Shown here: positions 15,988 to 51,958 of the stretch, piece after piece
Position numbering within the stretch: position 1 is the stretch's first letter
Layout: the number at the start of each line of letters is the position of its first letter
Assembly (NCBI RefSeq): GCF_022376445.1
Contig: NW_025955074.1
Location: 62,001 to 126,000, forward strand
Direction: 5' to 3'
Length of the DNA stretch: 64,000 nt
Source: Fomitopsis serialis
Lineage: Eukaryota > Basidiomycota > Agaricomycetes > Polyporales > Fomitopsidaceae
Program-made: the position numbers and the translations under genes
Notes under the pieces: generated by a model
Told to the model about the DNA's origin: nothing
The model's database searches: none
The model's input: the letters and a program-made list of their open reading frames with translations, nothing else

Positions 15988-16039
15988 AGCACATCCACCG
16001 AGGGAAACTCTTCGTGGTCCAGCGACCCTCACCTCCAGG

Positions 16040-23467: not shown

Positions 23468-23509
23468 CCTGGAGGTGAGGATCCGCTGCTTCAGGGATTA
23501 ATGAGATTG

Positions 23510-27876: not shown

Positions 27877-28858
27877 CTAGCGCGGCGGAGGCATCGCATA
27901 GCGGGTGACCTCGTTGTGCAATGGTGCATCCTGGAGATACGGCGCCATGATGACCGCATGCTTGCGCAGGTAAAGCTTGAAGCTTTCCCCGCTCCAGCGC
28001 CCGATCGACTTTACCACGTCGAAAGGTACACCCCGGAGTAGGTACTCCAAGGTGGCTCCGATGCGTATGCCGTGCCCCTTCATTGCGGGCAGGCCCTCCA
28101 GGGTCGTGATTGCGTCGAGCCTCTTTAGGAAGTCGCTGCGCGTGAGTGGTCGATGGCCGTCTCGATGCCGCCGCGCGAAAAGCGGCCCCTGCGCAGGCGG
28201 CTGGTTGACCTGTAGGTGGTTCGCAAAAGCAGCCGCCGGGTCTAGCGTGCCTATCTGTGCAGCCCAATACACGTCCTCGCCCTGCTCCGATGCGACTTTT
28301 GTGCTGGGGAGGTGGAACACCGTCACTTTGTGACCGTGCCTGTCCTGGTCATAGGTGACATCTGCTGGTTTGACGTGCAGATTGGGCCTGAACGAGTGGA
28401 GTGTTTGGCTGACGAACTCACCTAGCCGCGCGGCCGTGAAGAACGTCGTTGTGAGGCACGCAAACACCGCCGCGTCGAGCGGCAGTGCAATGTCGAGGTG
28501 CTTGCGTAGGGTGAGCAACAGCGCCAGCGTGACTGGATCGCGCTTGGGGCGTTTCGATGCTGGCGGCGCGAGTTTCTCTGCGCCTTTGAGCGCTGTGCGC
28601 AGCTCGGCGTCCTCTGTGTTCCACGCCAGCCCGTGGAGCACATGCCATGCATGCACCCCGGCGACGTAGTTCCGCAGGGTGGCTCCGCTATACAGCCCGG
28701 CGCATCCTGCAATGAACGCTAGGATTAGTCCCCGATCTGCTGGTCCCCGCTGGTCCTCGGGGATTTCGCGCGAGTCGCAATAGACCTGATAGACGAGCAA
28801 TCCTGCTCCGTATGAGTCCCGCGTGCCTTGTGCGTAGGACGCGAGCATGACTCGCATT
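27877..28858 (-). pseudogene. DIRS-type retrotransposon, tyrosine recombinase catalytic part
   Basis: About 326 residues hold a core-binding segment (SYGAGLLVYQVYC) and a catalytic domain with all expected residues: Arg in AARLGEFV, His-x-x-Arg in GHGIR, Trp in GRWSGES and Tyr in YLRKHA. The ORF ends at 27877. Its 5' side is cut by element B at 28860. The frame continues on the far side of B at 32629, where the N-terminal part of the same protein lies. This matches recombinases of DIRS/Ngaro-order retrotransposons in basidiomycetes; an RNase H piece of the same reading direction farther up (49432-49692) supports that over a Crypton. It is broken, so listed as pseudogene. Confidence 0.8.
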
Positions 28859-29694
28859 ACATCAGCAAACTCGGCAATTTCTGAGCATCTGACAGGCTGA
28901 CAGAGACCCCTCAGAGCGACTCAGTGCATCAGGTAGCTCAGCATTGTCAGATTATTCAGACCCATCAGATGAAGACACCTATTCAATTCCGATAATTGCA
29001 GTAGCCACAATATTATTGCTCGTACATCAATGGCTCGAGAGCGCTGATTGTTTCATTGTACCAAGAGTAACAATAGTGGGTAAACTACACTAAAATGTAT
29101 GGTCATCGTCGACACAGTCACATCAGCAGCATAGTCTATTCTCTCTCGCATTGTCTGCTGTCTCGCCGTGTTGTCTGCCATCTCGCCGCCCGTGCCATCT
29201 GCCGACTTGCCTGCCCCGTGTACCCTCTCTCGACCCATCTGCCCCGTCTGCTCTCCCATTTGCACAGGCCGGCAGCGGCAGCCACTCGTCTGCATGCTTC
29301 TGCTTGCTGGGTTCGTCCTCGGCCAGCTCCCGCTCATTCCGCTGGTCCTTGTTGAACACGTGTTCGATGGGCTAGTACGCATCATGCTTGTCTTTGTTGG
29401 GGTCGTTGTCGGTAGGCTCTTGCTTGCTGAGATCAGCCTCGCGCGGAGCTGACGAGAAGCGTTCAACTCACCTAACATGTACCCTGATCCTTCTCGCAGT
29501 CTAGCGCGTCGGGTTCAGACGCGTCGACACGGATGCGGGTAGTCTACGCCTAGTCGTGTTTGTCCCGCGCACAATTATCCTCGGTGGACTTTCCCTCGAA
29601 CACCCTCTCGCTGGGCGGGGTCGGCATAGGTGGATGCTTGCTTGCTGGATTCCGAATCCGCAGTCAGATCGTTGCATGCGGATTCGTCCTGGGC

Positions 29695-31885: not shown

Positions 31886-32628
31886 CATGCACGAAGTCTG
31901 ACGGCGTGCGACCAGCCGACGACACAAGCCCGTTGGTGCAAACCCAACAGGTATGCAATTGACGAGTCTTAACATACCACGCACGGATCTACCAGCATCG
32001 AAGACTTGACCGCCTACAGATATGGATCACGAACCGACGCGCACGGGTACGACGCGGGCCACTGGCAGTTCGCCGTACATAACGTGCCCGAGCCCGGTAC
32101 GACACAGCTCAACGAGCAGCACTGCGACAAGCAACAGTCCACCAGGCATCCGGCGCGGCGTGCAACGGCCTGCCGAGCAACAGCTGGGGCCTGGGCATAC
32201 CCCAGCTCGACGCGCATATGCCCGTGACTGAGGATGAGCGTGCCGCATCCTAGCCTGAGGAGGAGCCAGGCCACCGAGTACGAATGCAACGAGCGGGAGA
32301 GAGCCCGCCGTGGGCACCCGCAGGCGGTAGCTTGCGCAATTCTACGGTACATTATGATTAGCTAGCGCTATTCTGTACAGTAACAGTAGTAGTGATCAAT
32401 AGAATAATATTTAGTTGATTTCTATGCCCTGGCTGATCTTGGCTGACGAGCTGGGAGGTCTGACAGGCTGTCTGAACGGTCTGAGGATCCTGTCTGACGA
32501 GCTAGCATCGAAAAAAAACGAGGTCATGAGGGCTGAAAATCTGAAGCAATCTGAAGCAATCTGAAGGCTTCTGAAGGCTTCTGAACCCCCTGACAGGGCC
32601 GTCAGACAGATTTCATGTTTTCCTGATG

Positions 32629-33133
32629 TACGTTCTCGAGGTCGCGCTCTGAGAGGCGTCCGATGCTTCGTCCCGCCTCGTTGTTTACGCTGCGAGGGGT
32701 TTCCGGGGACCACTTTTGCAGCCTGTCTCTGGCCAGGCAGTGCGGGCGACGCTCCGAGGGCTTGGGTGTGAGGAGACTAGGGTACGGGCGAGGTCTCGCT
32801 GTCTCTCGCTTCTGCGTGACAGTCTTACCTCCGTGTCCCTCCTCGTCAAAGTGTTGTGTGCTCGCCCCACTCGGTGTTGGTTCGGATGTGCCAGTCGAGG
32901 TCTTCGTCGACGCACCGTTGCTCCTCCGCATGAGCGCGCTCGAGAACCTCGTCAATGCACTTGGCTGCGGCTCTCGGGTAGCATCCTTGTCGGTGTAGCC
33001 TGAGCTCGGTGGCGGTGAGCGGCTCTTCTGAGTCAATGAGGAATCTTGTGAGTTCGTTGGGTAGGGGGACTGGTGGAAGGAGGAGTGCGCGCGCCGGGTA
33101 GATGCCGCGTGAAGGGCCGTCAGCAGGATTGTT
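32629..33133 (-). pseudogene. DIRS-type retrotransposon, RNase H end and recombinase N-terminus
   Basis: Read on the - strand, the segment begins with NNPADGPSRGIYP, the end of a retroelement RNase H domain (the Asp of NPAD is the usual last catalytic residue), and goes on through LLLPPVPLP to RPHCLARDRL and LSERDLENV. It joins in frame to the catalytic recombinase part at 28857 once element B is removed. One frameshift is needed near 32850, between the EWGEH part and the KTVTQKRE part, so the copy was decayed or has since decayed. The right side is cut by the 16.3 kb element at 33134. Confidence 0.75.
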
Positions 33134-33732
33134 CATCAGGAAAAATGGCCTTGTCACACAAGACCTTGAGACCACTCTTGAACCGTTCAAGAGTAGCCAA
33201 AGCGCAGAAAGGAGTCTCAAGCGATGAGAGCTGCCTCAAGACAAGTGCCCTAATTGGATGACTCCCAAAGCCTCCCAAACATCTGACGCTTGTCAACAAG
33301 CACCGTATGTGTCTCACGAGCTCTTCAATTTGCTTTCAATTGTTCGTTTTTTTGGCCCAGTCGCCGCACCGCTAATGCTTGATATTCCTTGGATCCACTT
33401 TGTCTCCTCACAAAAGCACTTGTAGAGAGCTCCAAATATCTTCAAATCTCTTACAAACATTGCTTTTCACAGCATACGGCGGCACATCGAATACAATGCG
33501 AGCGTGATATTCAACTAATACACGGACATACAGATGTGATACCTACACTTACACCCAGTAGCTGATGATAGACGCGATATTGGGCTACAGGAGGCACAAG
33601 GGGAATACAGAGGCGGCGGCAAATGGCGGCGACGGAATGAGGACTGAAGGGGGTAGACTGAAAGGGTATAGGACGAAGACATCGTGCTCGTATCGTACAT
33701 CCCCACTCCATACTGCTTGGGGACGGTGTTGC

Positions 33733-36415
33733 TTACGCACGAGAAGCCGTCTTCTTCTCCCAGTTGGAGTTGAACATCTCATCGTCTTCGTCGTCATCGC
33801 CTTGGCCGACTTCGCCCGTGTCGCTGTCGTCAACACGCAATCCTGCAAGGGCTCTGAGAGCAGAAGGTATGTTCAGAAACATTCAGAATAATATGGTGTA
33901 AGATAATACCGTATGTAATTGTTGAGCGTCGAGTCCATGGACTTGACGAATGCGATGACCCCCGCACGCTTGTCGCGATCCCCTGTGCTGGCCAGCCGCC
34001 TGAACTTGTCGATCCGACTCTTGAAGCGATCGTACCTGGGACACGCATGTTAGAGGCGAGTATCAGAGCCAGCTAAGACTTACTCGCTAGCGTAGTGCTT
34101 CTCATCGAAGTTGATGGTCTGTCCCCTGAGTGCCTCCTCAAGGGCGACAACTATCTGCGGGAGGAAAAAATTGAGTTTTGTCTCCTTACTGAGCATATCT
34201 GCACTCACCGCGCAGCACGCCAGTGCGATCATGTTGCTGGGAAGTGGCTTGCTGAGGTCGAACAGCTCCTGGTTTTCGCTACGCATCCCTTCCGGGTTTG
34301 ATCCGAGCCACCACTGGCGGGCCATGACCTCAGCTATGGCCTCATTGTGGAATGGCATGTCGGTGTCCACTTCCCAGGTCTGGCCCCGAGGTCAGAGGTC
34401 AGCCAGAAGCATGTCATCCAATATCTTATAAGTACGTACCGCGGGGTCTACGTCAGGGTCAGGCATATCGAGGTTACCGTGATGGAACACATCCTTGTCC
34501 TTGAGCCATTTAATGCGGACCTCTCTCGCCTTGACGAGTTTCTCAGCACGAGCCGCAGCATTGAGCTTCTGACCTCAGGGCCCCGGTCGGACACCTTGAT
34601 GTGCAGAAAATCCTTCTCCACTACACGTTTCGCTTTTTGCTTGACTTCTTGACGGATCTGCGCGGCGATTCTGTACACCTAGGGTCCAGCGATGTGACAA
34701 TGAGTCGCGTCAAACAACAACTCAGAACCATACCTTGTTCGACAGCTGATTGTGCAGAGGACCGGGTGTCGCCCACAAAGGGTCGATTTCGTTCGTAAAT
34801 TCCGGCGTCTTGAACATCTTGTACTTCTCGCGCGTCCTGTCGATGATAACATCCGGCGCAACAGTTTTTGCGAATTCCCCTTGCTTCTTCCGCGGCCACG
34901 CATTCTCCAGCGCGATATACAGGCGGAACTCCTGCTGAGCGGTGTAGATAAAGTTCTTCATCATGTCAGTAGCAAATGGGTCCTCGTTGGCTGCGTGGGC
35001 AGAGCTCTCCTGGGCTTTACCCTTGCCCTTGTCTTTGCGCTTGACCTTGGGAGTAAGGGTGGTGCCCACCTTCGACGGGATCATGTCCTCAGACTTGACG
35101 ATGATCTGGACGGCAAGTTAGCATATTTGACAGTGGGTGAACCCGGCTCACCTCGTCGTCGTCGGCCTCATCTCCAACTTCGGACTTCTCGAGCTCATCG
35201 AGCTGGGGCTCTTCCTCATAGTCATCGTCACCGTCACCGTCAGCGTCCGATAGGTCAGCGTTCGATAGGTTGTCCTCGTCGGCATCGGACTGGCCAGATA
35301 CGTTGCCAGAGAACCGAGACTTCTCTTTTCCGGCACCCGCTCCCTTTCTGCGTTTGGACAGAGCAGCCCTGGTCACTGTCGCACTCTGCTTGATTTGCGG
35401 AGCAGCTAGAGAGGCGTTACCTAGCCCATTTGTCAATCACATATCAGCACTACAATGACGTCCACTTGCCACGTTTATTCTCGGTCTCCTCATCCTCTCC
35501 GCTCTGCACGCGGTCGCTTTCTTCGGAGCTATCCAGTATGCGCCGTGCCGGCTTTCCAGCATTGCCACCTTTCCAAAATCGTATACGGCATTAGTCACCG
35601 AACACAAGTGCAAAGACGACTTACGCAGACGCGCTGTAAGCTCTCTCTCTTCCTGAGTTGCCCCGGAGGCGGCATTCTTGCGTGGAGATGCGGCAGATGC
35701 AGCCGGCACTTGAATGCCTATGAGGACCGGTGCCGACGAGAGAGTAGCTGAATAGCACGTACCAGAACCCGTGCTCTCATCATTGGCTCCAGTCCCGGTG
35801 CGTGCCTTCTGCGACTTAACCTTCTTGCTTGGCCGTTCTTCACCGTCACTGAGCTGAGCAGCGTTCCTTTTGGAACCTGTGATAGCATCCACGTTGTCCT
35901 GTAATTCCTGAACAATAGCCTAATGAATACGTACCACTCTTCCCCCCGGTCTTTGTACGCTTAGGGTTTGTCACTATTTCACCACGAGCGTCGCCCTCAT
36001 TCTCTTCCTCTTCAACCTCGTCGTCATCATCTTCTTTCTGCATTGCCTCACTCTTTGCTTGGATGCCTGCAATGTCATCGGACGGTTGCAATTATGAATC
36101 ACTAACATAGCCGACTTTGTACTTACCTTCTCGCCGCTCTTTACTGCTGGACTCAGTTCCCCGTCTCATCTCTGCCACGATTTTTCGAGCCTTTGCCATG
36201 ATGTCCTTCTCGCTGGCGTTGGGCATCCCCTTCCGCACGAGCTCCTTCGCTTCTTTGAGTGCAGCAGCATAAGTCTGTTGACTTGCAGAGGCCGGCGTCG
36301 AGTCGGGTTTGCTGGATGAACCTGGCGCGCGGCCGCGCGTCGATGCCGGCTTCCGCGTCGCACTCTTCGTTGTCGTTGATTTGGCAGTCGCAGCTGCTCG
36401 AGTCTGGGGAGACAT
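33733..36415 (-). CDS. DUF6532-domain protein (cargo of element 1)
   Basis: A multi-exon gene starting MSPQTRAAATAKSTTT. The first two thirds are low-complexity: lysine/arginine-rich and acidic tracts (EDDDDEVEEEENEG; DADGDGDDDYEEEPQLDE) with SKR and KKVKSQK stretches that could act as nuclear localisation signals. The helical domain begins near ATDMMKNFIYTAQQEF and includes ARQWWLGSNPEG and LPSNMIALACCAIVVALEEA, the layout of DUF6532. The last exons join across 33905-33850 and end in EKKTASRA at 33733. Introns are short with normal borders. Function unknown. It is the leftmost gene of four in the same direction. Exact exon borders in the N-terminal half are not settled. Confidence 0.72.
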
Positions 36416-36761
36416 GATAGTGTGAGACCAGAAAGCACGGGATGGACGAACTGAGATGCGTCGAAAACTGGACTACGTGCGAGATTGACGAGCCATGCCG
36501 CACGGTGTTCTCGGAGTTGCGGAGTGCGTGCGACGGAGTCTGAGAACCCGAAGGTGTCCCCCAACGGACTGTTGTTCACAAGACCCGAACGTTTGAACAG
36601 TTGACCAGGTAGGAATAGATGAGATCTGAGCTTATCAGCAGAACAGAGGAACGGTGCCAGTGGGAGTCGTGACACGTTGGCAGCCGTAGGCGGGCATGAC
36701 ATTGATAGCGCGCAGCTAATACTACGTAAGATGTTGAGGATACATAGAAGAAAATCATGTA

Positions 36762-39700
36762 CTAATGGAAATGTTCGTTGGCCTCCCAGCCATTGCGCCC
36801 ACTGTTCGTCCACTTGTCGATCTCCCTATCTGTATGGAGAACTATCGACGCGCGCTCTCCAGTAAAGTGGAGATTAAAATGAGTAATGCGTGATGAGGAG
36901 AATGCCGCAAAGTCTCCGTTTTGAAGAGGAAAGACTAGACCGGGCTCATACAAACACAAATCTCCCCCGTCGTAATCTCCAACCGCCAGAACAACACACA
37001 TTGTTTTGTCTTGGTGGTCCCTGTGAGCGAGAGTGGTCGCATTCAAATTGATGACCAGGGATAAGAAGGGATGCACGACGGAAGATGCGTTTCCAGGCAG
37101 TACTTCCGCGTCGATTTGGAGGCCGGCATAGTCATCTGGCAAGACCTTCCGTATCTGTTACAGGTTTGTGTGAGAAATTATGAGCAAGGACAGCTATGTG
37201 TTCACCTGATCGCCAATGTACTCGAATACGTGCGCAAAAACCGACCGTAAATTGACGTAGATATCTTGATACTTGCGCATATCGCTTGAGGTGTAGGGCA
37301 GAAGCTGACCGTAATTCATTCGCGTGTTGTCAGCCTTGCCCACAACATAAGGATGCACGTCGGGCGGGGCTTCATGACCCTGTTCAGATCATGATTGGCA
37401 GCGTAATACAAGAGACTACGAATTGTACTTACTCTCATGCCATGTCTGTTGTACCATGCAAAATGGAGTGCAGGGAAACAATATTCCTCGCCCATCGCTT
37501 CTGAGTTCATGTGCTGAAGATTGAATTTTTGCAGGGCGAAACAGGCAACCAAGTTGGTCTTGAGCGTGGCGCGAAGATTATCCGGCATGTCCGGGAAAAG
37601 GCAGGCAATCAGTTCCCCGTTGCTGGCCTTGATTTGCAGTGGTTCTCTGCATCTCGGTTAGCTCGACTCTCCTTAAGCTATGGGTGATTACCTGATGATA
37701 TGCGGGCGTACCCTGACGTACCGCGTACTACATATGCGTTGGCCGTTTTGATACTGTTCAGACAGCTTGAGAGGGCGGTACAGTTCCCGCGTCAATCTCG
37801 AGCTGTAACTGTCAATACGTGTGAGACAATACCTGAGTTTCCAGCTCCTCAATGGTACCAGGTTCCCTTGCCATACTGGCCTCGGATCGCCGGGTCTCTG
37901 TCCACGCAAACGCTTCAGAGCCAGGGACGGGGTTCGCTCGATGCCCATCGCATCGTAGATCAAAGCTTGTGGTGAGGGATGTCCCATGGGACGACACTGG
38001 ACCTCCCCCTGCTTCGCCATCACCGAGCGTTGATTGTACGTAGCACTCGTCATCGTCAAGGACGGTGCAGGGAGACGGCGGATTGGAATGGACCTCATTT
38101 GCGGTACACAAGAGTTGCTGACTGGCCCACGTCAGTTGTAATTCAACCTGATGGTCGACGGGGTGCAGGCACGATAGCCATGCCTCAGGGTTCCTGTCAA
38201 CGGCTTCAAAAGTGCTTGACAAGGTATTATGTGTACAGTTGCAACACCACGATCAAAGAACTTACTTCATACTCAGCGCGCCGAAGACACGGTCTGATTG
38301 GGTCAGATCGGAACAGAGGATGTAGTCCGAACGGAGGTTCATGTCCTCGAGAAGGCTGCGAGAGAACAACGTGTCGAAGCGGAGAGATGCAAGCTGCCGG
38401 ATGCGAGCAATGGTTGGAATGATGCGCTCAATGATCAGTTGACCGCATGTTGTAGCTATTGAGTTACAGCAGAGTGAACGTTGTTTCATCAGTGGGTTCA
38501 TAGTGGGAGAACGTACTGGAATCTGGGCATCGCAGTACGTTCGCCAATTGCCACGCAAAGTCATCCACGGATTTTTCTAGATTGATCCGCAACTGAGCGC
38601 AGACGATTATGATCAGTATGTACACAGATCCTTGGAAGAGATCGTCAACAACATCGTCATAGAACGCTATGACGAGCGTACCGCCAGCAGCAACGGCGGC
38701 AAATTTGCTGCCTAACTTGATCCAATGCCGGAAGGTACGCTCGCTCGGCGCGTCTGGTAACCCTTCAATGTGTCTGCGCCAAACTTCGGCATTGCTCTTG
38801 ATATCATCTCGCCGCTTCAAACTACTAATGCATGTCAGCGTTCTCAACCAATCTCAATAGAAGCATGTCCTTACGCCGTACACTTACATACTAGCTGTAT
38901 GTAGTGAATCATGAGTAGAAAGTTCAAGGTGAGGTCGCGCTTAGTGACCAGGCCACATCTCTGCATTATAGAAGCCAAAGAGTCGTCGGCAAACCCCGCT
39001 CCGAAGAGATCGTTGCGTGCTAGGGAGGTTATTATTCCGTCCATGTTCGACTCGGCACCGTGCATCACAGCACCTAGTTGGGCCACGAAGGCGTTTATTG
39101 CGGGGGTGACTTGGGCAGGGGGGGTATGGAGGTTAACCCATCGACGACTGGCGCTGGCCTGGGCACCAGTGCGGCACTTCCAATAAGCTACATCCGCTCT
39201 TCTGCCACTAGAAGAGCTGCTCTTCTTTCTTGATGAGCGACGTGTTGTCAGCTTTCCCTGCCCTGTGGCGATATCTGTGACGTGTTTCGAGTTCAGTGCC
39301 AATTGAATAACATTGACAATGTCCCAAACTCACCAGCCTTGGCCATCTGAGTGTTGAGCTCATGTTCTTGTGACGTGGCATGGTCGCCTGTACCGCGTTG
39401 TACCGCGTGAGTTGTGGAATCACAGTCGTCGACGCCCATCCCACTACTGTCCAGGTCTGTTGTATGGTACGTAAGAAGACACGGGTTCTCACCATCTACA
39501 TTGGCGTAGAACTGACCGTGCACATGAGGACGAGGGGCGCCCATATGGCTCGCATCAGCATCGTCCACGTCGGTACCTCTGTTGGTATCATCATACGCGA
39601 TGAGGGCTGATTGAGTAGTGAATAACATCGTTTACAAATCACTCATAGAGTGGTCACTCACGTTCTTCGTTGATTGGCGCGCCGTTGGACTGCGAAGCCA

Positions 39701-39869
39701 ATCTATCCTGGATGTCTTGAAGACGTGTGCGAGTGCTTTGCAGAGGTTCCGGCAGACAAGGAAAGCTGGTGAGGAAATCCAGCATTTGTGTGAGTTCAAA
39801 ATGTGAGAAAGGAATCAGGACTTCCGTCACTGATGCAGCGTCCTCCATGGTCAAGCTCAAGTGTGACAT
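36762..39869 (-). CDS. TET/JBP-like 2-oxoglutarate Fe(II) oxygenase (cargo of element 1)
   Basis: The last exons (to 36762) encode a double-stranded beta-helix oxygenase core. HRDHQD supplies the His-x-Asp iron ligands, GDYDGGDLCLYEPG is the usual following strand pair, ITHFNLHF gives the distal His, and GERASIVLHTDRE the Arg that binds 2-oxoglutarate. This pattern fits the basidiomycete TET/JBP-related family, whose animal members oxidise 5-methylcytosine in DNA; that family is known to sit beside KDZ and Plavaka transposons. Upstream exons (39869-39661, 39606 onward) encode an N-terminal region with a Ser/Arg/Lys-rich stretch (TTRRSSRKKSSSSSGRR). One middle junction (near 38830-38890) is uncertain, so two genes are possible. 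Activity and substrate are inferred. Confidence 0.72.
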
Positions 39870-39980
39870 GGTAAGCGCCCAAAATCGGCGGATCGGTACG
39901 ATGGAGATTGTCATAAACATATCGGACGTGTTGAATTGGCCATCATGTACGTGTGGCACTACTTACACAACAACGACCCC

Positions 39981-41338
39981 CTACTTTGACCGCACACTCT
40001 TTCCTTTACCCTTCGAAGATCCGGCCTTCCCCCTCCCCTGGACGTGTTTGCCCTCGGCCTTAGCGTTGGTCCGCTCCTGCGCCTGTTTTTCGCTCATCAA
40101 CCGCTCGTCGACGCGCGTGCGTACTCGGGTTCGACCTCCCGCCATGGCATACGGCAGGATGTTTGACGGGGCGTGCTCGGTGAAAGCGTCGAACGCATCG
40201 AAGAAGCCCTGCTGCGACGTCAGCACCAGGTCAACCACGGCGTTCGACCGATCCAGACTGGGTAACTGCGTGTAATAATTAGGGACGTCCTCCTCGGCGA
40301 TCTTCAACAAGACCTTGTTTCCGGGAGCCGCCATGCCCGGAAACTGGTGGAGTTCAGCGCGAAGATCTTCGTCTTCTTCACGAGCGTTCACGGCAGCGAG
40401 GACCTGGTAAACCAGGACCCACAAGCGGGATAAGTGGTCCTTGAAGCGACGTACGGTTTCGAGTGGGGAGAGGTGGGGGTTGATGCTCGGCATGAGCGTG
40501 TCTGACGACATGTTCAAACGGATTTCCTGCATAAACCCGTGATTGAAGCCCTATTGAGTTTGGTGTTCGTACTTACCACGAAAACGAATTCCTCAAGTAT
40601 CCTGGGGAGGTCCCAGTGTTCATCGACGGCTTGACGAAACTTGTGGTACTCCGAAGGGAGTACCGCAAGTGCGTACGCATGCGTCGCACCATAAACGGCG
40701 ATATTTCGGAGGGCAATAGGGGGTGTTACGTGGTCCGGCCACACCTCCACCATCGGCTTGAGGGCGTCCCGAGGACGGCAATCCAAGGGGGCCTTACCGT
40801 GCCCTTTTGATGCTCTCCCGCCACTGGGATGCCTTCCAAGCAGTTCCCACTTCCCCCATCCTTCCGCCTTGGAGTCCAACTTCCGCCCATCCTTCTCGGC
40901 TTTGGCGGCCTCGATCCACGCTTTGGGGATGCTCCCTGGGACCTTCCCCCCGGGGTTCGGATGCGATTCCTTCAGCAGAAGGATGAAGATCCCGCAGGCG
41001 GCGATCAGGCGGCGATCCCACATGTTCGCCATCTGCTAGCCGTTCATTAGAATCAAAACTGTGAATGTGTGAGCACGTACCTTCCGCATGATGTCCAGGG
41101 GAGACTGCGACACTCCGCACTCTGTTTGACACAGTGCGTGTGAAGTGAAACCGAAATCGATCACGAAGGATGCGTCTGGCACGACAGCGGGATATTCACC
41201 GATGCAAGTCAACAGGCTCGCGATGTCGAGATCAAATAGATCCCCGTACGTGAGGAAACCCCGGTCCATGAGTCTGCGCCATAGGTTTTCGATCCCGTCG
41301 TGTATTCGACTGGCCGGAGCGTGCTGCGCTGGAGGCAT
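39981..41338 (-). CDS. Hypothetical protein (cargo of element 1)
   Basis: Three exons (41338-41081, 41032-40577, 40526-39981) give 419 residues in consistent phase. No domain is recognised. The N-terminus has an amphipathic stretch (DGIENLWRRLMDRGFLTYGD), the middle a lysine-rich part (IEAAKAEKDGRKLDSKAEG), and the end a basic tail (GRGKAGSSKGKGKSVRSK) that could bind nucleic acid or act in nuclear import. It lies between the oxygenase and the next cargo gene, same strand, with only about 110 and 370 bases on either side. Confidence 0.75.
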
Positions 41339-41705
41339 GGGCCTGGGACGCCGCCGGTGTGCGCTGAGACGCGAGGCGTGAGGCGCGAGGCGCGAGACAC
41401 GAGACACGAGAGTTTGGTTTGAGAACGATCTGCGCTGCCCTGTTCACGGCCCTTGTGTGATCACTGAGTCACCGACGGCGCAGATTGTCTTCTTCCAGAA
41501 CTCACCTAGATATCATCTACTGCCTGCGTACCTTGGCTTCTATTCACTTCCCACAGCGGTGCATCGCGGGCGCCTGAACATCGGGCGCCAAGATCATCTC
41601 TCAGTCGCACGCGCGTCAAGATCTCGACATAACAGTGCGTGATTTCAGCCATAGTATACAAACAATCACAAGAACGAGAACTCGTACATAGCCACAGCGA
41701 ACCCT

Positions 41706-43388
41706 TCAGACGAAAACGTTGTTGCGGTACGCGCCCTCCTCGCCATAGGGAAGCCCTCCCTTGAGAAGGAACGCCCTACCCAGTCCGCGCTGCTGATAGA
41801 CCATCGCCGCCAGCTTGTGATACATGACACGCTGCAGCCACCGAATCACTCTGCTCCCCGCGCCCTCGCAAACCTCCTTCAGCAATGTCTCGTCCACGTA
41901 TCGGTCCTGACCGACCGACTTCAAATCGACCGACTGAACCTGATCATCCGGCAGCAGCGCGACCGGCGCCAGCGCGCGTTCAGCAATATTGGAAGCATGA
42001 GAGTAGACGATGTTGTGGATGTGGTCTTCCAAGAAGCGACTCCCGTCAGGGGGGGACGTCTGTGGCGGGATGCCGCGTTTGAGCAGGCGCTGCATCGGTG
42101 TTGGTTATGAGTACCGCAACGCATAGATAAGTCGACTTACAATGAATCTGGGTCCCTCGGTATCCCAGTCCTCCAACGTCCTTGCGTGCTGCGCACACTC
42201 CTGAAACTTGGCGAACTCCTCACACCGGTACACGGCCATACAAGCCTCCATCCGCGCAGTCTCGGCACCCGGGGGCACACGACTGCTGCGGTAAAGGATG
42301 TTGTTATTGAGGGCCGGGTCCGCCTGTCCCGCCAGAGCGATGACGAAGCCTTGTAAGTTCTTCAACGAAGGCAACGCTGCAGAGATCTACGTCATTGATG
42401 AGCAGGATTATGGCATGATAAGAGATCTTGACGTACCTTTAGAGTCTGGTAAAGGAACTCGGCTCGCGTATGTGTCACCAGGGCGAAGAATATCTCTTTG
42501 CCCGAGCCCGGAGCCAAGTGCATATTCTGGACAACGGAGCTGTGGCGTAGGGTGAACTGAACCCGCTCGTTCTTGACCAACATCTTGTACGCGACGCAGG
42601 GCCGTGCGTCTGAGAACGTGACAATTGTATGCCGAAACATTGACGCCATCTCGTCGAGTAAATCGAACGCGAAGTCCTCACTGTAGGTAGGCGTTTGGGC
42701 CACTATCTTCGCGTCTTGCGGCCAGAAGTCCATACTGTCTTGCATAAGCTTCCTTGCTCGGCGGTGGTGCAGATAGGAGTGCTTTGGTACTCACTTGATG
42801 GCACGCAGGAATGCGACGTACTTTGCCAGTTCACCGCTCACATCCCACTGCCAGCTCTCCTCCAGGGTGCTCTGCAAGAGGGAAAATTCACGCTCCTCAA
42901 TGCTGAAGATCTCCTGTTGTGAACAAACATAAACGTATATACGCACGTCCGGGTTCGCCATACGTTACCTGCATAATGAACCCATCACGTCCCGCCTCCA
43001 CCCACTTCTGCCATAGCGTCCAGATTTCCTCGAAGAACCGCACTATGAGCTGTAGGTCTTCCTCAGCAGGGTTCATCCGAGGCAAGAGTGTCATGAATGG
43101 GTTGGTTTCATCGTTGATGTGCGTCGGTTCCTCAGATTTATCGAGCAACTTCGCCGCGATGGGCAGTGCCGAGCGCACACGCTCAGTGAAGGAGTTCCCA
43201 GGAGAGTAGTGAGTGGCGATGCTGGGAGGGGCAGAATCTTCAGTGGGGGTTTGAGGCGGGGCCGACTCTTGGTCGCTGTCTGACAGTTCGACATCCGAAC
43301 CACGACCGCCGTCTCCAGTGCGTCCTGAAGACAGATCAGTCGTCTGAGTATCGATAGAGCGGATTGAAGAGTAACGATTCAGAGGCAT
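41706..43388 (-). CDS. Hypothetical protein, Plavaka-paired family (copy in element 1)
   Basis: Five exons (43388-42969, 42913-42795, 42752-42437, 42386-42141, 42089-41706) give 494 residues with all phases consistent. The N-terminal 60 residues are acidic and Ser/Thr-rich (VELSDSDQESAPPQTPTED), then comes SPGNSFTERVR, then a helical body. No catalytic motif is recognised. A paralogue starts at 63429 and shares SPGNSF, the exon 1 end (GFIMQ against GFVTQ) and the start of exon 2. Both are divergently paired with a Plavaka transposase gene, here 843 bases away. It may be a DNA-binding or regulatory partner of the element, but nothing in the sequence proves it. Confidence 0.75.
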
Positions 43389-43658
43389 TGTGGAAGCATG
43401 TACTGAAGGTGTACTGAGGGCAGCGGTGGCTTTGTCAGCCGATGCACCATGATAATGCCTGTGAACATGAAAACAAACCAAAACTTACGGTTTGCTCACT
43501 TCTACTTCCCTCGTCACTTGCTCTGTTTGCAACCACAGGCAGTTGCTCAATTAAAACACAAGCCGATGTAATACAGAACTGGATACTTACCGCGTTATAC
43601 GTCATGTAAATCCCGCTTCACAGACCACTGTACATGCCGTTACAGGCACCTAAGGGGT

Positions 43659-43711
43659 CCTGCCTAAAACGGACATCGGCAATGGGCTTGCCAATGACCG
43701 CTTTAGGCAGG
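43659..43711. promoter_or_regulatory. Hairpin in the divergent promoter region
   Basis: CCTGCCTAAA and TTTAGGCAGG are perfect 10-base arms; the stem continues imperfectly through CGGACATCGGCAA against TTGCCAATGACCG. It lies between the divergent cargo gene (43388) and the transposase (44231), so it could be a protein-binding site or a relic insertion. Confidence 0.55.
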
Positions 43712-44230
43712 CTAAGCGCTAGCCAGTGCGTACATTTTGTTCATATCAAAGCCGTGAACTCACCAACGAGCCTGATTCTGCGTAGGTGACGACGCACAGT
43801 CGTGATGAACGTCAAACGAGGGTGCAATGTTGCACCGAAATTGGACTGTGAATGTTATGATAACGTCGTGTAAGTGTCGATGTAGATTCCCAACCCAATG
43901 AAAGAAGACATACCCTTGAGATCCGCTCAGTGAGAAATGACGCTAGCACTTATCCCTAGGTTCCTAGGCAGTGGGAGTACGGCGTGAAGGTAGGAAGATG
44001 CGTGTGACAGACTGCACGGCGCGAGCCATCAACTTTACCTCATAAGCGATTGAATTGACGCGCATAGGCGCGGGGACGCTACTCAGAGGGCTTCAAGAGC
44101 CGTCAAAGCACTTCCCAGCGGGTACGATCCTCGATTTTCTACCGCCCAGTCCATCGTTGTAGGTGAGAAGACTAGCTATATCACCAGATAACGCATTACT
44201 GACCTTGAATGTGTGGTATAGCCTTCCTCC

Positions 44231-47200
44231 ATGAAAGGCAGAGCCAAGACGTATGTGCCGTTCATCCGCCCCGGCGATGCCGAGGACCGTACGTGTCCAG
44301 CTTGCGACAAGCTCCTCAAGACACCGCAAGGTCTCATGGCCCACCTATCAACAGCTAGATCGTGTAAGTGGTACAATAAGGGGAAAAACCGGGAACTCAG
44401 CGGGATTGTCGTTCCCGAAATTATTGAGGATGTCACCGCCAGCACAGAAGACGGCGAAGGTGACCTGGACGACTTCCGAGACGTTGTGGAGAACAGGGAT
44501 CTCTTCCGGTTTGAGATCCCTGTGCGGCCAGAGGATGGGGCCTTTCCCAACCCGAGCCAAGCTTCTTCTTCCACCGGTGCGCAACCAGCTCCGCCGACCG
44601 TACGGGTTCCTGCAGTGCCGGCCCTGGACGACGACGAGGACACGAGGGTGGAAGATGAGGACCCTCTAGCAGGGAAGGTCATACGCATGGAGCCCACCAT
44701 CGTGGAGACTTGGAGGGCGTATTTCTCGGGCGAGGACGGGGACGACCCGATGGACGGCGACGGCGCGGATGGGCTTGACGGAGACGAGGCAATGGATGTG
44801 GATGAAGAAGACAGGCCTCCTGAAGAGCAAGCCAGAAACGAAGTGTGGAAACCGTTTGCGTCGGAGCTCGACTGGCAAGTGGCTAAATGGGTCGTTTGTG
44901 AGGATGTAGGGCAGAACTCCCTGAACCGATTCTTGAGCATACCAGGAGTAAGCTGTTCCGTATTTCTCTACAGTCCAATTCTCTGAAGCAAGCTCACAGG
45001 TAGTCGAAAAGCTCGGGCTTACCTTCAAAGACGTGCGAGAGCTCTTCTCAAAGGTTGACGACATCCCCGACCGGGCGTCATGGAGAACATCTTCCCTCAC
45101 GTTCCCTGACAGGCCTGATGAGGCCCATCTAGTACGTTACCGCGATATTCTGGAGGCAATCAAGGCCCTCTTGGGCAACCCGTCATATGCGAAGCACATC
45201 GTGTACCGGCCCAGGCGAGTCTTCGCCGACCGATCCAGGATGAAGCGCATCTTCACGGAAATGTGGACGGGTCTGTGGTGGAATGCGGTACAGGTACGTC
45301 CTCTTTATACATAATAACTTGGTACAGGCATATGAATTTTCGTCTTAGGAACTGCTGCCCGAGGGTGCGGCTGTTGCCCCCGTGATTATATCTACAGACA
45401 AAACGCAGCTCACTCAGTTCTCGGGGAACAAGTCTGCATATCCGGTCTACCTCTCCCTCGGCAACATCCCTCGTGCCATTCGCCGCAAGCCCTCGCAACA
45501 CGCTTGTATTCTACTGGGCTACCTTCCGGTGTCGAAGATCGACAAGGAAAAAATCACAAAACGCGAGCGAAAGGCGAGGACACAGAGGCTGTTCCACGCC
45601 GCCATGCGAGTCATTCTCAGACCGCTTGTGCAAGCCGGCGTGGACGGTATGGAGGTTACTGGCGGCGACGGTTGTGTGCGTCGTGTCCATCCCATCCTTG
45701 CGGCATATGTCGCCGACTTCCCTGAGCAGTGCCTGGTAACTTGCTCGAAATACGGGACATGCCCTAAATGCCATTGTCCTTCCGACAAACTGGAAGACCC
45801 CGATCCCGCTCAGCCTCGTACGTCGGAGATGACAGCGCAAGCAATCTCAGAGGCATACAGGACGACTCGTAATCCCGCTGCTGCCGATGCCAGCTGCATG
45901 GAGCGTGACATAAGCGGCAATGTGAAGAAGCCTTTCTGGGCAGACTTACCGTATACCGACATACATCTCTCCGTTACGCCCGACATTCTTCATCAATGCT
46001 ATCAGGGAGTATTCAAGCACCTCGTCTCTTGGTGCCAAGATCTCCTAGGTCCCAAGGAGCTAGATCAACGACTTCGCTGTCTGCCGCCTGCCAATGGCAT
46101 ACGTCACTTCAAGCATGGGATTGCCTCTCTAGCCCAGGTATCCGGCAAGGAGCGTAAGGAGATGGCCCGCATTCTCCTGGGCTGTCTCGCGGGGAAGATC
46201 CCTAAAGCTGTGATGCTGGCGTTCCGCTCTCTGCTAGATTTTATTTATCTAGCTCAATATCCCACCCACGACGACACCACACTACGGTACATGGAAGACG
46301 CCTTGAAAACCTTCCACCAAAACAAGCACGTTCTCGTCTCCCTCGAGATCCGCGACCACCTGAACATCCCGAAACTACACTCTCTGCTGCACTACGTCAG
46401 TTCGATCCGTCAGTTCGGCACCACTGACAATTACAATACAGAGATGTTCGAGCGCCTCCACATCGACTTTGCGAAGAAAGCGTGGCGCGCATCAAACCAT
46501 CGAGACGAGTTTCCTCAAATGATGAAATGGATCTCAAGACGCGAGAAGATGAACATGTATGAAGTGTTCCAGAAGGAACGTTTGGCCGAGCTGGAAGACA
46601 ACATCTCAGATGAATCCGACGAAGGCGGCGATGCACACTCAAAGGATACCATCGCAGAGAGGGACACGGGTCGTGAAGAAGTTGTCGACGTCGGGGATAC
46701 CGTCAAGATAGCCAAGTACTCTCCCGCTCCGCATCGGCATCTTGGCCGGGTCCAAGAGCAGCACGACGCTCCAGGATTTACGACGGCCTTGGCACACTTC
46801 CTGAACGACCTTCAGCCTACCGAACTACGTCTGCCTCGAGGTCAACTGTCCCGAACGTGGCTACCCATTGACCGGGTCGACGTTTACCACAAATTCCAAT
46901 TCAAACCTTGCGAAATGTCCGATGGGAGGGAGGAAGTCGACTTGGTGAAGGCAATTCCTGGCTCCTCGGCGAAGGGGAGGAAAAGCCGATTCGACACCGT
47001 CATTGTGCTTGACAACGAGGAGGCGGAATCAACAGGCATCAGAGGTAAGACGAATTGACAATGCCGTTGCATAGCTGTCTACTTTACTCATGAGTCTCAC
47101 AACTTGACACGCAGGTACTCGGGCCGCCAGAGCGAAAGTCGTCTTCAAACTACCGAAGACATTACCGGTATCAAGAGGCGGCGGTGATGCACCTGCATGG

Positions 47201-47497
47201 TGGCCGCAAGAGCCCCTTGCTTATGTCGAGTGGTATGCTCGCTTCCCGCGAGCCCCGGATCCGACGCACCTCATGTACCCGGTGAGCAAGGCGCCTTTGA
47301 AAGCAGATGGTACACCTCAAGGCAAAGTTATTCCGTTGTCCCAAATCCGTCAGTCATGTCAACTTATTCCTACATTTCCTGGTCGGGCCCGAGGCGCCGT
47401 TCCGCATGATTGGACGTCTGACAATGTATTAGACAAGGCTAGTAGCTTCTTACTCAACAACTGGAGCGGCATGTATGCGTATCAAACTCTATGGTAG
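44231..47497 (+). CDS. Plavaka transposase, copy 1
   Basis: Four exons (44231-44947, 45000-45293, 45349-47044, 47115-47497) give 1029 residues, open throughout. A C2HC zinc finger lies at residues 22-45 (Cys22, Cys25, His38, Cys45), then an acidic linker. The RNase H-like DDE core begins about residue 340: STDKTQ (Asp354), TPDILHQ (Asp549) and NTEMFERLH (Glu702 or Glu705) are the candidate catalytic residues by analogy with CACTA transposases. A Cys cluster (CSKYGTCPKCHCP) interrupts the core. The last exon carries AWWPQEPLAYVEWY. It should act in the nucleus on the element ends. A partner gene follows 361 bases downstream. Confidence 0.92.
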
Positions 47498-47857
47498 CAT
47501 GATGCATTTTGCTTGTTGGCCTCTGATCGTCCTTTCACGTCAATAGATGAGGCAGTATGTATGCATTCCAGGCAGTATGGTAATATGACAATACATCTCA
47601 CCCATAAATGCGGTTACAATCTGAATGAGGACACATGGAATGAGGGCTATTCAATGTAACACAAGCGTACTACATGTGTACTCAAAACGGTCTTCAAGAA
47701 CTCGGCGAGAATTGAGATCAGTTGTGAGCGCTAAAGCACAGTATCGACCTCTCTCGCGTCCGTCCACACTGTGCTTGTGGGCACCACAGCAACTCTGCCG
47801 TTACTCTGCTCTTGAGAACTCGCTCAACTCGACGCTTAACTTCTCACCTCTATCACG

Positions 47858-48983
47858 ATGCCTCTTCATGATCCCCGGGTCCTCAAGCTTCTCGCACCGG
47901 TAGTGCCAACATATGATCGTGCCACCCGTAGTTCGGCGCCATGTTTGAGGATAGGGGGGGAGCTGTATCACATAACTGTCGTCTGCCTGGATCGACAGAG
48001 GCTGGGACAGTTGTTCAACTACGTGAGTTCCGTATTCATTCGTCATACATCACCCAGTGTGTGATGTACGATTGCTCGAACTGCCCCGCAACGCTTGCGT
48101 TGCCACAGGGAGACAAGAAAGTGTTGGACTTCACGCGCCAACAAGTCGATGCCCTCGATCCGCCCGCAAAGCTGGGCGGATGGATTCTTCTCGGAACTTT
48201 GGAAGAATGGCGACCGGTTTCTTCGGGCAGCACACCTCCCTCGAACGTTGTGCGCAGGGCGAAGGTTCCGGGCGCGCCTAGCCGGTACGTGGTACCCACG
48301 AAGATTGTAGTAGAGACGTTAGTCTACGCCTTGGTGAGTACCCATAGTTGTCCCGAAGGGCTGGCACAAATGTTCACAAGGATTAGGACCGGTACCCTCC
48401 TCTCGCGTTGCCTCTCGTATGGAATTTGCACAACGGAGTGATAGAGGTCTCCTTCCACCAGCCCCTCACCACGCAGCTGTTTCGTGGCCTCAATAGGTGG
48501 AAGAAGACTCCGCACGCACGTCGCACGACGTTTGATATCTTCAGCCTTGAACGCGGGGAATTTGCGCCCGCCGCCACGCACCCCCAACCCGGATCCGAAT
48601 CCTTTCGTCTGCAGCTCCCACTCACGTATATACCAGTCTTCAAGGCGCATTATGTCACTGTGGCGGAGTTTGCGGGGCAGTATTCACGCGGCGTTCGACG
48701 GTTGGTCCCTATGTGCTCAATGAAGATGAGCATGATGAACCTGGAGTTCCTATGGCCGGTTGACATGCCTCGCCGCCGTCGTTACCTGCGAGCCAATTGG
48801 CATGTCGAGTCACGGGGGAGCCCGGAAGGGGTTGTAGCGGTGCGGCCGCTGTTGGGTGTGGAGGGCTGTACTGTGGAGGAGGTGAGGTGGGACAGAGAAG
48901 AGAACGTGAAGGAGGAGGAGGAGGAGGAGGGGGTGCTGATGGGTCATGATGACAACGGTGGGATGGGGATGCAGTACAACTAG
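47858..48983 (+). CDS. Plavaka partner protein, copy 1
   Basis: Three exons (47858-48022, 48058-48333, 48387-48983) give 345 residues. The first intron is only 35 nt, against 55 nt in copy 2. Shared landmarks with copy 2 are a MP..DPRVL.LL start, CPATL, LDPPA(K/R)LGGWILLG, V(V/I)VETLVY, YPP..LPLVW and FLWPVDMP. The end is very acidic (run of Glu). No known domain is recognised. In both copies 1 and 2 it lies just downstream of the transposase in the same direction, so it is likely the second gene of the transposon; function not inferable. Confidence 0.78.
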
Positions 48984-49431
48984 TAGTAGGAATGGCGGAG
49001 GTCACTATCAATACCTCATGTGGTTACAGTACAAATGACAACTCACCAGTACAAATCCCATTGTGAAAGACGTTCAATACACCCCATCTGAAGACTGGCA
49101 CAGGTAGAGATTCAGACTAGTACTATTTTCTGTGAACAACTTGAAATGGCACACAAGGAAACAGTACTATTTTGTTGTGCAAGTAATTAGCTTGTAGCTG
49201 TCTGTGCAGGTATGCGAGGGCGCCCTAAATGAACGACAAATGAAATTCATAGCATTCTGTGAATGCTAAATTGCTCACAGTGTTCAGAGCGATTTTGACG
49301 GCTTGGGGGTGGGGCTCATTAGTTTCAGAGTGCGCAAGAACTGCTTTGAGAGGTCCACAACGCTTGGAAGGCTTTCCGGGCACTTTGGGAAATTCTCAAT
49401 CTCTTGGGCGGCAAAGGTGTTTTTCCTGATG

Positions 49432-49692
49432 TTGGCGCTCGGGACGTAGGCGGTGTGTATGCATTCCGCATCTCCGCTGCTGTCGAGATGCTCCAGGAGT
49501 CGCTGGAAGACTCCGTTGACGGCTGTGTTGCGACTCCGGTGGTTGCGCCAGCCTTCGACAACTCCGATGTTATCCCCATGGAGCCGTAGATGCTCACCTG
49601 TGCCTCGCGCCGACGTAATGCAGCGCGCGAGAAGCTCGAACCCGACTGCCTCGGCCCATCCAATGTCTCGTTCGCCGTCGAGTGTCCTCCAA
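49432..49692 (-). pseudogene. DIRS-type retrotransposon, RNase H piece
   Basis: Read on the - strand, all 261 bases are open in one frame and carry GWAEAVGFELL (first catalytic Glu), HGDNIGVVEGW (catalytic Asp) and NHRSRNTAVN, ending at AYVPSAN. The next part of the domain, NPADGPSRG, is at 33133 on the other side of element 1, in frame after removal. The left flank of a second Plavaka element starts at 49693, so the reverse transcriptase part expected upstream would lie beyond that element, outside the window. Confidence 0.8.
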
Positions 49693-49997
49693 CATCAGGA
49701 AAAACACCTTTGCCGCCCAAGCAATTGGAGATTTCCCATAGTGCCCGCCAAGCCTTCGAAGGCTCCAAAAGCTCTCAAAGTAATTTCTGCGCGGTATTGA
49801 CAAAGCGGATGTGGTCTCAAGTAGTAGTCATATGTCTTAACCTATTTTATGACGTGAATACTCTTGAGAGTGATCCTTGCATTCCTGCCTTTAATTGCTG
49901 GTTCATGCTGGTACAGACCCATCGGACTCAAAAGCTTGTCAAATAAACCCAGAGAATTGCTGGACTATTACATTGGAGTCACTGGGATTAACACGTA

Positions 49998-50540
49998 GGT
50001 AGGAACGGGGATTGTGGCCAGCAGGGCCAGCAAGTAAGGTGGGTGCAATGTTTTTTACCTCGACCCCCGTAGCCAATCCCGGCAGATGTACTACCTACTT
50101 CCTGCCGTACCAACTTGAACGCCCTTTCGCACTCTTGCCCCGACCGGTTTACTACTCGCTTTCAGCACCACGCGTCGCGCCTCCTCTCTACCAACCGATT
50201 GAACTAGTACTTGGCACGTACTCTGTGCCGCCAACGGCGGGAAGCTGCTCCTACCCTGCCGGGCGGTCTGGTACGTCCAGTCCGTGTTCCAGATTTGTCC
50301 TATTAGTACCCAATGAGCATGAGCATAGCGAACTTGAAGACGACTCCAGCGGGTGCGTACGCACGCAACTCAGGCCCACAAGTTCAAATTCAACATCTAC
50401 GCACCTGACAAGCCTCAGTAGTGATCAGTTGATATGATTCTCAATATATTTCATTGACTCACTTTCTAATGTCCTGGCTGAATGGCGCAAGATCTGAGCG
50501 GCAGTCTGACAGCAGCCTTTGCAAGTACACATTGAGTATC
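49998..50540 (+). repeat. Fragment C: truncated third copy of the element A/B sequence
   Basis: Matches 6580-6880 and 31190-31780 (for example CCGTAGCCAA.C.CGGCA and GCCAACGGCGGGAAGC), then jumps to the CAGTAGTGATCA part near the right end. It lacks both termini and has decayed, so it is a fossil copy inside element 2. Confidence 0.65.
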
Positions 50541-50649
50541 ATTCAAACCGGACTAACTAATAGTACATGATCAATTCGCAGCCCTCTCAGTGACCCCCAT
50601 ATTCCGTAGTACCGCATACACCGGCATCCCCATTACCTGATACTAACAC

Positions 50650-51730
50650 CTACTCTACGTCCTCCTCCCCATCCCACTTCACTTCCTCCACCGTACAGCC
50701 CACCTCGCCCAGCACCGGACGCACGGCCGCGAGCCGACGTTGCGAGCCCCACCACTGCCCCTCGACATGCCAATCAGCGCGTATGAGCTGACGGCGCTGC
50801 GGCATGTCCACCGGCCACAGGAACTCGAGGTCCATGATGTTCCTCTTCATCGAACACATGGGCTTCAAGGGTTGAATGCCGAGTGAGTGCTCGGCGGCGT
50901 CCTCGACGATGGTGAGGGTTGAGTCCTTGAAGACGGGGATGTAGGTGAGGGGGAGCGGCAGACGGAAGGAGGTGGAGCCGGGAGCGCGGTGTACGGACGC
51001 AGGACGGAACTTCCCCAGTTTGACGTCGAAGAGTTCGAATGTCGCAAGTTTCCGGAAACGATTCTTCTTGTACTTGTTGTACGCACCGATCACCTGCATG
51101 GCGATCGGCTGGTCGAAGGAAAGCTCAATCTCCCCGTTGTACAAGTCCCACACAAGGGGCAACACCATAGGGGGGTATGCATCCTGAGCCTTGTAAGCGG
51201 TTGCCCAGCATTCAGAACACTTATTAGCACTCACCAAGGTATAGACCAGCGTCTCCACTATGACCTTCATAGGTACAATCATCCTCCGCCCCGGCGCGCC
51301 GTGAGGAACCATCGGCCTCGGTACCACCTCGTCAGGCGTGTTCCGAGGATCCCGCAACCACTCCTCCATGAACCCGAGCAGAATCCATCCGCCCAGCCTA
51401 GCGGGTGGATCAAGAATGTCCATTAGGCTGCGGACGTACAGCAGCGTGTTGTCGTCTATCTGCACCGCCGATAGCGTTGCAGGGCAGACCGAGGTGTCGT
51501 GCACCATACACTGGGTGATAGACGTCGCAAAAAGAACGGATGACAGACGAATGCATCGCACTCACATAATCAAACAGTTCTCCAAGCCTCTTACGCTCCA
51601 GACAGACGATGGTGCTGCGGTAGATCTGGCGGGTTGAGCGGTCGCACGGGGCCGAGTTGCGGACGGCACTATCGAACGTTGGCAGGACACGCGAGAGAAG
51701 GTGGAGGACACGGGGATCGTAGACCGGCAT
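50650..51730 (-). CDS. Plavaka partner protein, copy 2
   Basis: Three exons (51730-51566, 51510-51235, 51183-50650) give 324 residues, open throughout and in phase. It is colinear with copy 1 at 47858-48983, with the same intron positions, and lies 229 bases downstream of its transposase. The C-terminus is shorter (ending WDGEEDVE), without the long Glu run. Conservation of both exons and introns between the two copies argues that it is a functional gene of the element. Function unknown. Confidence 0.78.
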
Positions 51731-51958
51731 CTTGACAGAGGAAACGAGCAATCGAGGGTAGAGTTGAGCGTTGGAAGAGTCGTTGTAGTGAGCAAAAGCC
51801 ACAGCGTGGCTGCGTGAGAAGTTGAGTTGGCGCTTTAGCGCTCACAACTGCTCACACGGCTCTCTGAACGCTTTGAGAGCTCTTGAAGCGCTCAGTATTT
51901 CGCAACGCGCTGCTTGTGTGCTCGCCCTGTTTGAATATAAAATTCGTTTACCATTGCC

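What the first reader, a model, noticed from the sequence alone, without database searches (positions are those of the whole stretch)
33134..49431. A 16.3 kb Plavaka transposon with four cargo genes, including a TET/JBP-like oxygenase
Inverted CATCAGGAAAAA ends, a TT duplication and exact frame repair of the interrupted RNase H delimit one unit that holds a full Plavaka transposase, a partner gene, a DUF6532 gene, a 2-oxoglutarate oxygenase and two unknown genes. Association of TET/JBP genes with Plavaka and KDZ elements is known in basidiomycetes, but a bounded unit with this gene set is a precise candidate for a mobile epigenetic module.
Basis: partly seen in the sequence, partly recalled or inferred. 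Interest (0 to 1): 0.92.

Follow-up and report, generated by a model that had tools for sequence, protein, structure and literature searches.

The report
TET-carrying Plavaka transposon in a polypore
A 16.3 kb jumping gene in a wood-rotting fungus carries, besides its own transposase, an enzyme related to those that erase DNA methylation marks, and relatives with the same layout sit elsewhere in the same genome, which makes transposon escape from silencing testable.

The parts
33134..49431 (.). complete PlavakaB-type transposon, 16,298 bp
   Evidence: inverted ends, TT duplication, frame closure, same layout in other units
33134..33171 (+). left terminal inverted repeat; first 12 bp CATCAGGAAAAA exact
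49394..49431 (-). right terminal inverted repeat; last 12 bp exact
33132..33133 (.). target site duplication TT, left copy
49432..49433 (.). target site duplication TT, right copy
34080..36415 (-). DUF6532 gene region; PF20149 match at 34200-34532 (over cut-off, one TGA inside) and a weak one in frame 34722-35117; exon structure only partly modelled
   Evidence: DUF6532 present in 14 of 14 transposase-bearing pairs
36762..39962 (-). TET/JBP-like 2-oxoglutarate oxygenase gene; 11-exon model, 847 aa from the Met chosen, last (catalytic) exon 36762-37154
   Evidence: open splice model, Pfam 26.9 bits below cut-off, fold of relative P0001, H/D/H/R conserved
39981..41338 (-). G4, unknown gene, about 420 aa, no Pfam match
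   Evidence: open model, no Pfam, relatives beside Plavaka
41706..43388 (-). G5, unknown gene, about 486 aa, no Pfam match
   Evidence: open model, no Pfam, relatives beside Plavaka
44231..47497 (+). Plavaka transposase gene, exons about 44231-44947, 45000-45293, 45349-47044, 47115-47497 (last exon end from the open frame)
   Evidence: PF18759 301 bits, splice model, dN 0.061 and dS 0.82 against element 2
47858..48986 (+). partner ORF, about 340 aa, no Pfam match; similar sequence lies in the inverted neighbour around 50650-51561
32629..33133 (-). interrupted RNase H-like host frame, downstream part
49434..49692 (-). interrupted RNase H-like host frame, upstream part; itself cut at 49693 by a second element

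Best explanation
33134-49431 is a complete, apparently autonomous cut-and-paste PlavakaB transposon. SHOWN by sequence: it lies as one piece at a TT target in an RNase H-like frame; it belongs to a large family in this genome with a constant layout (end, transposase on one strand, then, where found, G5, G4, TET-like oxygenase and DUF6532 on the other strand, end); transposase and oxygenase change mostly at silent sites, as under purifying selection. INFERRED: the transposase cuts at the CATCAGGAAAAA ends; DUF6532 is a second core protein of the element, perhaps a DNA- or chromatin-binding helper; the oxygenase oxidises methylated bases (5mC most likely) on or near the element, so that host DNA methylation silences it less.
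Against: The closest unit in size, C29 (16,287 bp), lacks a 2-bp duplication; 8 of 22 pairs lack one, including 3 of the 9 TET+ units. For the copies C794 and C779 the opposite end was not found in the 200 bp fetched where length predicted it. No near-identical second copy of this element was found from its own ends. The empty sites are paralogues, not the same locus in another strain. G4 and G5 were not detected in C29. In any orientation, 6 of 34 AG-type loci also lie within 12.5 kb of Plavaka and 3 of 34 within 6 kb of DUF6532. The TET model fails Pfam's cut-off (26.9 of 34.9), and the fold model of its relative has mean pLDDT 49. No enzyme activity, methylation or expression data exist here.
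Confidence: 0.82

Rival explanations
1. The left and right ends belong to two different elements and the genes between them are an accidental neighbourhood or a host gene cluster.
For: The end motif is common (288 copies) and the window has further ends at 32617-32628, 49693 and 55674; beyond the shared 12 bp the two ends agree only partly (57% over 60 bp).
Against: TT duplication and exact frame closure, paralogous sites aligned across the junction, the same genes in the same order between ends at other places, no internal end motif.
Confidence: 0.03
2. The large unit is a small Plavaka (transposase + DUF6532) into which a separate TET/G4/G5 block was later inserted or captured; the block, not the element, is the novelty.
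For: Units of 6.7-9.2 kb with only transposase + DUF6532 matches exist (C89, C113, C116).
Against: No end motif and no pair of inverted repeats found by the repeat search bounds the block inside the element. The TET is shared by diverged units, so a capture was old, or the small units lost it. Direction not resolved.
Confidence: 0.35
3. The oxygenase does not demethylate: it makes another base modification, marks element DNA for the transposase, or acts on RNA or protein.
For: The class has D at H+5 and V at H+11 where CcTet has Gly331 and Asp337 (CcTet residues from PMC12730594). CMD1, which makes a different adduct, is also a close fold match.
Against: The 16 best rows of the structural comparison are TET-type enzymes that act on 5mC in DNA, with a gap of 2.4 Z to the next.
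Confidence: 0.25
4. The oxygenase belongs to the known AG-type TETs of KDZ elements, merely nested here.
For: TET genes of that type are frequent in the same genome; 6 of 34 lie within 12.5 kb of a Plavaka match.
Against: Different core residues and different neighbours in the conserved positions.
Confidence: 0.03

Closest known systems
TET+ PlavakaB families of Agaricus bisporus and Gymnopus confluens (Kojima 2025, PMC12730594; abstract, methods, results 3.2 and 3.4, first of two parts of the discussion, legends and passages read; supplements not)
   Same: Plavaka transposase, CATCA..TGATG ends, 2-3 bp duplications, a TET/JBP gene inside the element
   Different: the abstract places the Plavaka TETs in the PE type, whose hallmark is HxE; the paper states that Polyporales showed only TET+ Kyakuja. 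Here HxD with D at +5 and V at +11, in a Polyporales genome, with DUF6532 and two unknown genes; a search of that paper's main text for 'DUF' gave one match, shown in the reference list
TET+ Kyakuja (KDZ) elements with AG-type TET, relatives of CcTet
   Same: DNA transposons with a TET/JBP gene in Agaricomycetes; TET loci of that type lie near KDZ transposases in this genome
   Different: different transposase and TET class; DUF6532 in the conserved position beside the TET in 0 of 34, within 6 kb in any orientation in 3 of 34
TET-less PlavakaB (units C89, C113, C116 here; TET- Plavaka families in PMC12730594)
   Same: same ends, transposase and DUF6532 (for the units here)
   Different: 6.7-9.2 kb, no TET match
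CACTA/EnSpm elements with an accessory protein (accessory protein recalled, no call)
   Same: short duplications and CA..TG ends (PMC12730594 groups them with Plavaka), transposase plus second protein (recalled)
   Different: no sequence comparison of DUF6532 with such accessory proteins was made

Membership tests
PlavakaB transposon | Plavaka transposase domain PF18759 | tested here: met
   301 bits against cut-off 26.3
PlavakaB transposon | termini 5'-CATCA..TGATG-3' | tested here: met
   definition from PMC12730594
PlavakaB transposon | 2 or 3 bp target site duplication | tested here: met
   TT; 14 of 22 family pairs at least 2 bp
PlavakaB transposon | transposase falls in the PlavakaB clade of the published tree | not tested
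   published sequences (supplement) not available here
TET/JBP dioxygenase (superfamily, by fold) | oxygenase core closest to TET enzymes | tested here: met
TET/JBP dioxygenase (superfamily, by fold) | HxD...H iron ligands and downstream Arg | tested here: met
   H761, D763, H809, R818 of the model; kept in the relatives that reach that far except P0002, whose predicted protein departs after HxD
Pfam PF12851 by score alone | score over the curated cut-off 34.9 | tested here: not met
   26.9 bits; relative P0007 carries the domain in the database
AG-type TET (CcTet-like) | Gly/Ser and Asp at the positions of CcTet Gly331 and Asp337 | tested here: not met
   D and V there in ours and in 7 of 9 relatives, the other 2 end before; in 29 of 30 fetched top Tet_JBP loci of this genome S (21) or T (8) and D, one not read
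PE-type TET | HxE in place of HxD | tested here: not met
   HRD in ours, C29, C121, C146, C327
PU-type TET | residues conserved in rust-fungus transposon TETs | not testable with these tools
   alignment shown only in a figure; no rust-fungus protein came up
KDZ (Kyakuja/Dileera/Zisupton) transposon | KDZ transposase PF18758 inside the unit | tested here: not met
   no PF18758 match listed on contig C18

The most novel reading that the evidence does not exclude
PlavakaB elements of brown-rot polypores are a two-level system: transposase plus DUF6532 form the minimal mobile core, and large members add a co-inherited anti-silencing block led by a fourth, so far undescribed class of transposon TET (HRDxxDxxxxxV) with its own conserved N-terminal region and two conserved helpers, possibly with a base specificity different from known TETs.
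Probability: 0.5. Interest if true: 0.68.

Novelty: new variant of a known kind. Interest (0 to 1): 0.52.

Why it matters
Whether transposon-borne TETs protect their own element from methylation is not experimentally settled (so PMC12730594). Here one genome holds TET+ and TET- units with the same kind of ends and transposase, plus short units without gene matches, so methylation, oxidised bases and movement can be compared within one organism. The family also gives DUF6532, a domain named in only one held paper, a home: a core gene of PlavakaB transposons. It further shows a TET class that fits neither of the two published types that could be tested.

Tried and rejected
Near-identical copies of this element sought from its two ends: none beyond a 79% stretch of 100 bp of the right end at C790 and at element 2. 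The homologue search with the TET alignment reached no further than the single-sequence search. PDB by sequence gave nothing significant for this TET class, while an AG-type copy from the same genome hit CcTet at 7e-22. The DUF6532 model of P0011 is fair (mean pLDDT 71, much of the core near 90, almost all helices) but had no significant match in Foldseek's PDB search (best E 0.53) and none by profile (best E 0.31); its function stays open. G4, G5 and the partner ORF have no Pfam match. Considered and rejected: ends from two elements; host gene cluster; nested KDZ/AG TET (see rivals). C62/C124 were dropped as independent copies because their right flanks are the same 40 bp; C44/C265 because they share the right flank and C44 lacks the left end motif. 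The opposite ends predicted for C794 and C779 were not found in the 200 bp fetched. The two C13 pairs were not examined for duplications. For the counts one row per place was kept: 122 of 139 Plavaka rows, 118 DUF6532 rows (152 matches; list cut), 89 TET rows merged to 88 loci (191 matches; list cut; rows of the catalytic part), 27 of 42 G5, 9 of 17 G4, 74 of 108 KDZ. 'AG-type' loci are the 36 Tet_JBP matches over the cut-off minus 2 that overlap this class; residues were read in 29 of the 30 fetched. Only 123 of 323 Plavaka candidates were scored, so absences are weak. An empty allele in another strain could not be tested.
Full report
WHERE IT LIES. The window is bases 62001-126000 of contig C18 of a 66.2 Mb, 806-contig genome. 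Four contig lengths of that genome (C146 463,813; C129 64,381; C76 85,426; C779 182,296) equal the longest-contig lengths listed for Fomitopsis serialis proteins P0002, P0011, P0015 and P0001. I therefore take the genome to be F. serialis (Polyporales), an inference.

THE INSERTION. CATCAGGAAAAA starts at 33134 and its inverse ends at 49431, each flanked by TT. A query of the joined flanks (764 bp) aligned across the junction (query base 505) as one match at C505:5968-6714 and C290:96023-96769 (75% identity, query 8-763, equal scores), and over part of the query at C335 (232-748, 69%) and C94 (232-763, 67%). These are paralogues, not the same locus, but they show the uninterrupted arrangement.

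IS THE PAIR REAL? The 12-mer occurs 288 times in the genome against 1 for the reversed pattern. That could have made the pairing accidental, so I tested it. The search lists the first 100 places (contigs C2-C146). Among 42 neighbouring ends less than 35 kb apart, 24 are inward-facing, 8 and 3 point the same way and 7 are outward. For 22 pairs (20 fetched, plus C18 and C29) I read the flanks: 14 have an identical flank of at least 2 bp where 1/16 is expected per pair, P = 2.7e-12. The 8 without are C23, C28, C29, C39, C62, C76, C89 and C121; C28 (30 kb) and C121 (28 kb) may be mispaired or nested. Copies at two places agree: C76 and C129 are identical inside (100/100 and 99/100 bases) and unrelated outside at both ends. 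The left end of C72/C794 and the right end of C121/C779, both of units with TET, are 100% identical inside over about 100 bp and differ outside. The opposite ends of C794 and C779 were not found where predicted.

WHAT THE UNITS HOLD. Of the 24 pairs, 7 are 2.8-3.7 kb without any gene match (probably non-autonomous copies). Three are 6.7-9.2 kb with transposase and DUF6532 only (C89, C113, C116). Nine have transposase, TET and DUF6532 (C18, C22, C28, C29, C63, C72, C121, C124, C146). Two have transposase and DUF6532 at 18 kb without a TET match (C76, C129). C23 has TET and DUF6532, C62 only TET, and C75 (19 kb) nothing. All 14 with transposase have DUF6532. The layout is constant: transposase on one strand, then, where found, G5, G4, TET and DUF6532 on the other, DUF6532 next to the end. 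G5 was found in 5 of the 9 TET+ transposase+ units, G4 in 3. Six of the 9 have a 2-bp duplication (C18, C22, C63, C72, C124, C146). In C29, C89 and C116 the transposase domain lies 1.6-1.9 kb from the end (3.4 kb here), which leaves little room for the partner ORF, so that gene is probably variable (inference).

GENOME-WIDE ASSOCIATION. Of 88 loci of this TET class, 60 have a DUF6532 match downstream on the same strand within 6 kb (1 in the mirror position), and 38 have a Plavaka match upstream on the opposite strand within 15 kb. Of 34 AG-type TET loci over the Pfam cut-off (2 of 36 dropped because they overlap this class) the numbers are 0 and 1. In any orientation the contrast is weaker but clear: Plavaka within 12.5 kb in 47 of 88 against 6 of 34, DUF6532 within 6 kb in 60 of 88 against 3 of 34, KDZ transposase within 8 kb in 4 of 88 against 23 of 34. 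The two TET classes thus mostly ride on different transposons in one genome. Two relatives, P0002 (F. serialis) and P0006 (Suillus ampliporus, listed name), are predicted as one protein with TET-like and DUF6532 parts, which fits neighbouring genes outside this species too.

OTHER GENES. The transposase model runs 44231-47497. That 47115-47497 is its C-terminal part rests on the splice model and on recall of Plavaka proteins. Partner (about 340 aa), G4 (about 420 aa) and G5 (486 aa) are open and without Pfam match. DUF6532 in family member P0011 folds as a mostly helical domain (mean pLDDT 71, much of the core near 90) with no significant PDB match (best Foldseek E 0.53).

PRIOR WORK. The library count for Plavaka is 11 papers, 10 listed. 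The decisive one is Kojima 2025, PMC12730594 (abstract, methods, results 3.2 and 3.4, first of two parts of the discussion, legends and passages read). It defines PlavakaB by CATCA..TGATG ends and 2-3 bp duplications. It reports TET+ Plavaka only from Agaricus bisporus and Gymnopus confluens, with Polyporales yielding only TET+ Kyakuja, and says an earlier study (its reference 21, by recall Iyer 2014; not seen in the listing and not read) implied Plavaka-TET association in Fomitopsis pinicola. Its method clustered hits at 75% identity and extended consensus sequences from hits over 80% identity, so single divergent copies like this one could escape; that is my inference. DUF6532 is named in one held paper, as a list item beside Plavaka. 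Passages on Plavaka in PMC9674265 and PMC8290104 were seen; they do not mention TET in what I saw.

VERDICT. It is a new variant of a published kind: Polyporales, another TET class, a conserved DUF6532 companion and two conserved unknown genes. The anti-silencing role is inferred from the enzyme family and from selection, not shown.

Noticed in passing
window 49693-55673: A second PlavakaB copy in inverted orientation, 261 bp from the first and in the same RNase H-like frame; transposase exon 88% identical in protein, partner-like sequence also present. Its far end was not found: a third element begins at 55674.
   Followed up: partly
window 55674 to beyond 64000 (C18:117674 to about 131.7 kb): Third element start (+), Plavaka transposase frame at 59443-61248 (-), DUF6532 match at C18:131238-131726 (+) near the contig end.
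   Followed up: partly
window 32617-32628 (-): An 11-of-12 copy of the end motif just before the insertion, pointing left; maybe the right end of yet another element.
   Followed up: no
G000 C13 (two), C39, C64, C67, C78, C82: Seven end pairs of 2.8-3.7 kb without gene matches; C78 and C82 share 100/100 bases at both ends and differ outside, as expected of non-autonomous copies moved by the same ends.
   Followed up: partly
window 15989-16924 (+) and 22610-23497 (-): Two frames with pro-kumamolisin activation domains (sedolisin-type proteases); between them a BTB-domain frame at 18498-20342.
   Followed up: no
window 27880-28920 (-): Weak match to tyrosine recombinase (Phage_integrase, below cut-off) downstream of the RNase H-like frame on the same strand; perhaps parts of one YR retroelement.
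   Followed up: no
G000, 34 AG-type TET loci: CcTet-like TET genes, 23 of 34 near KDZ transposases, a separate set from the Plavaka TETs.
   Followed up: partly
G000 C13 to C804: 86 ends share a longer motif CATCAGGAAAAACC, suggesting subfamilies by end sequence.
   Followed up: no
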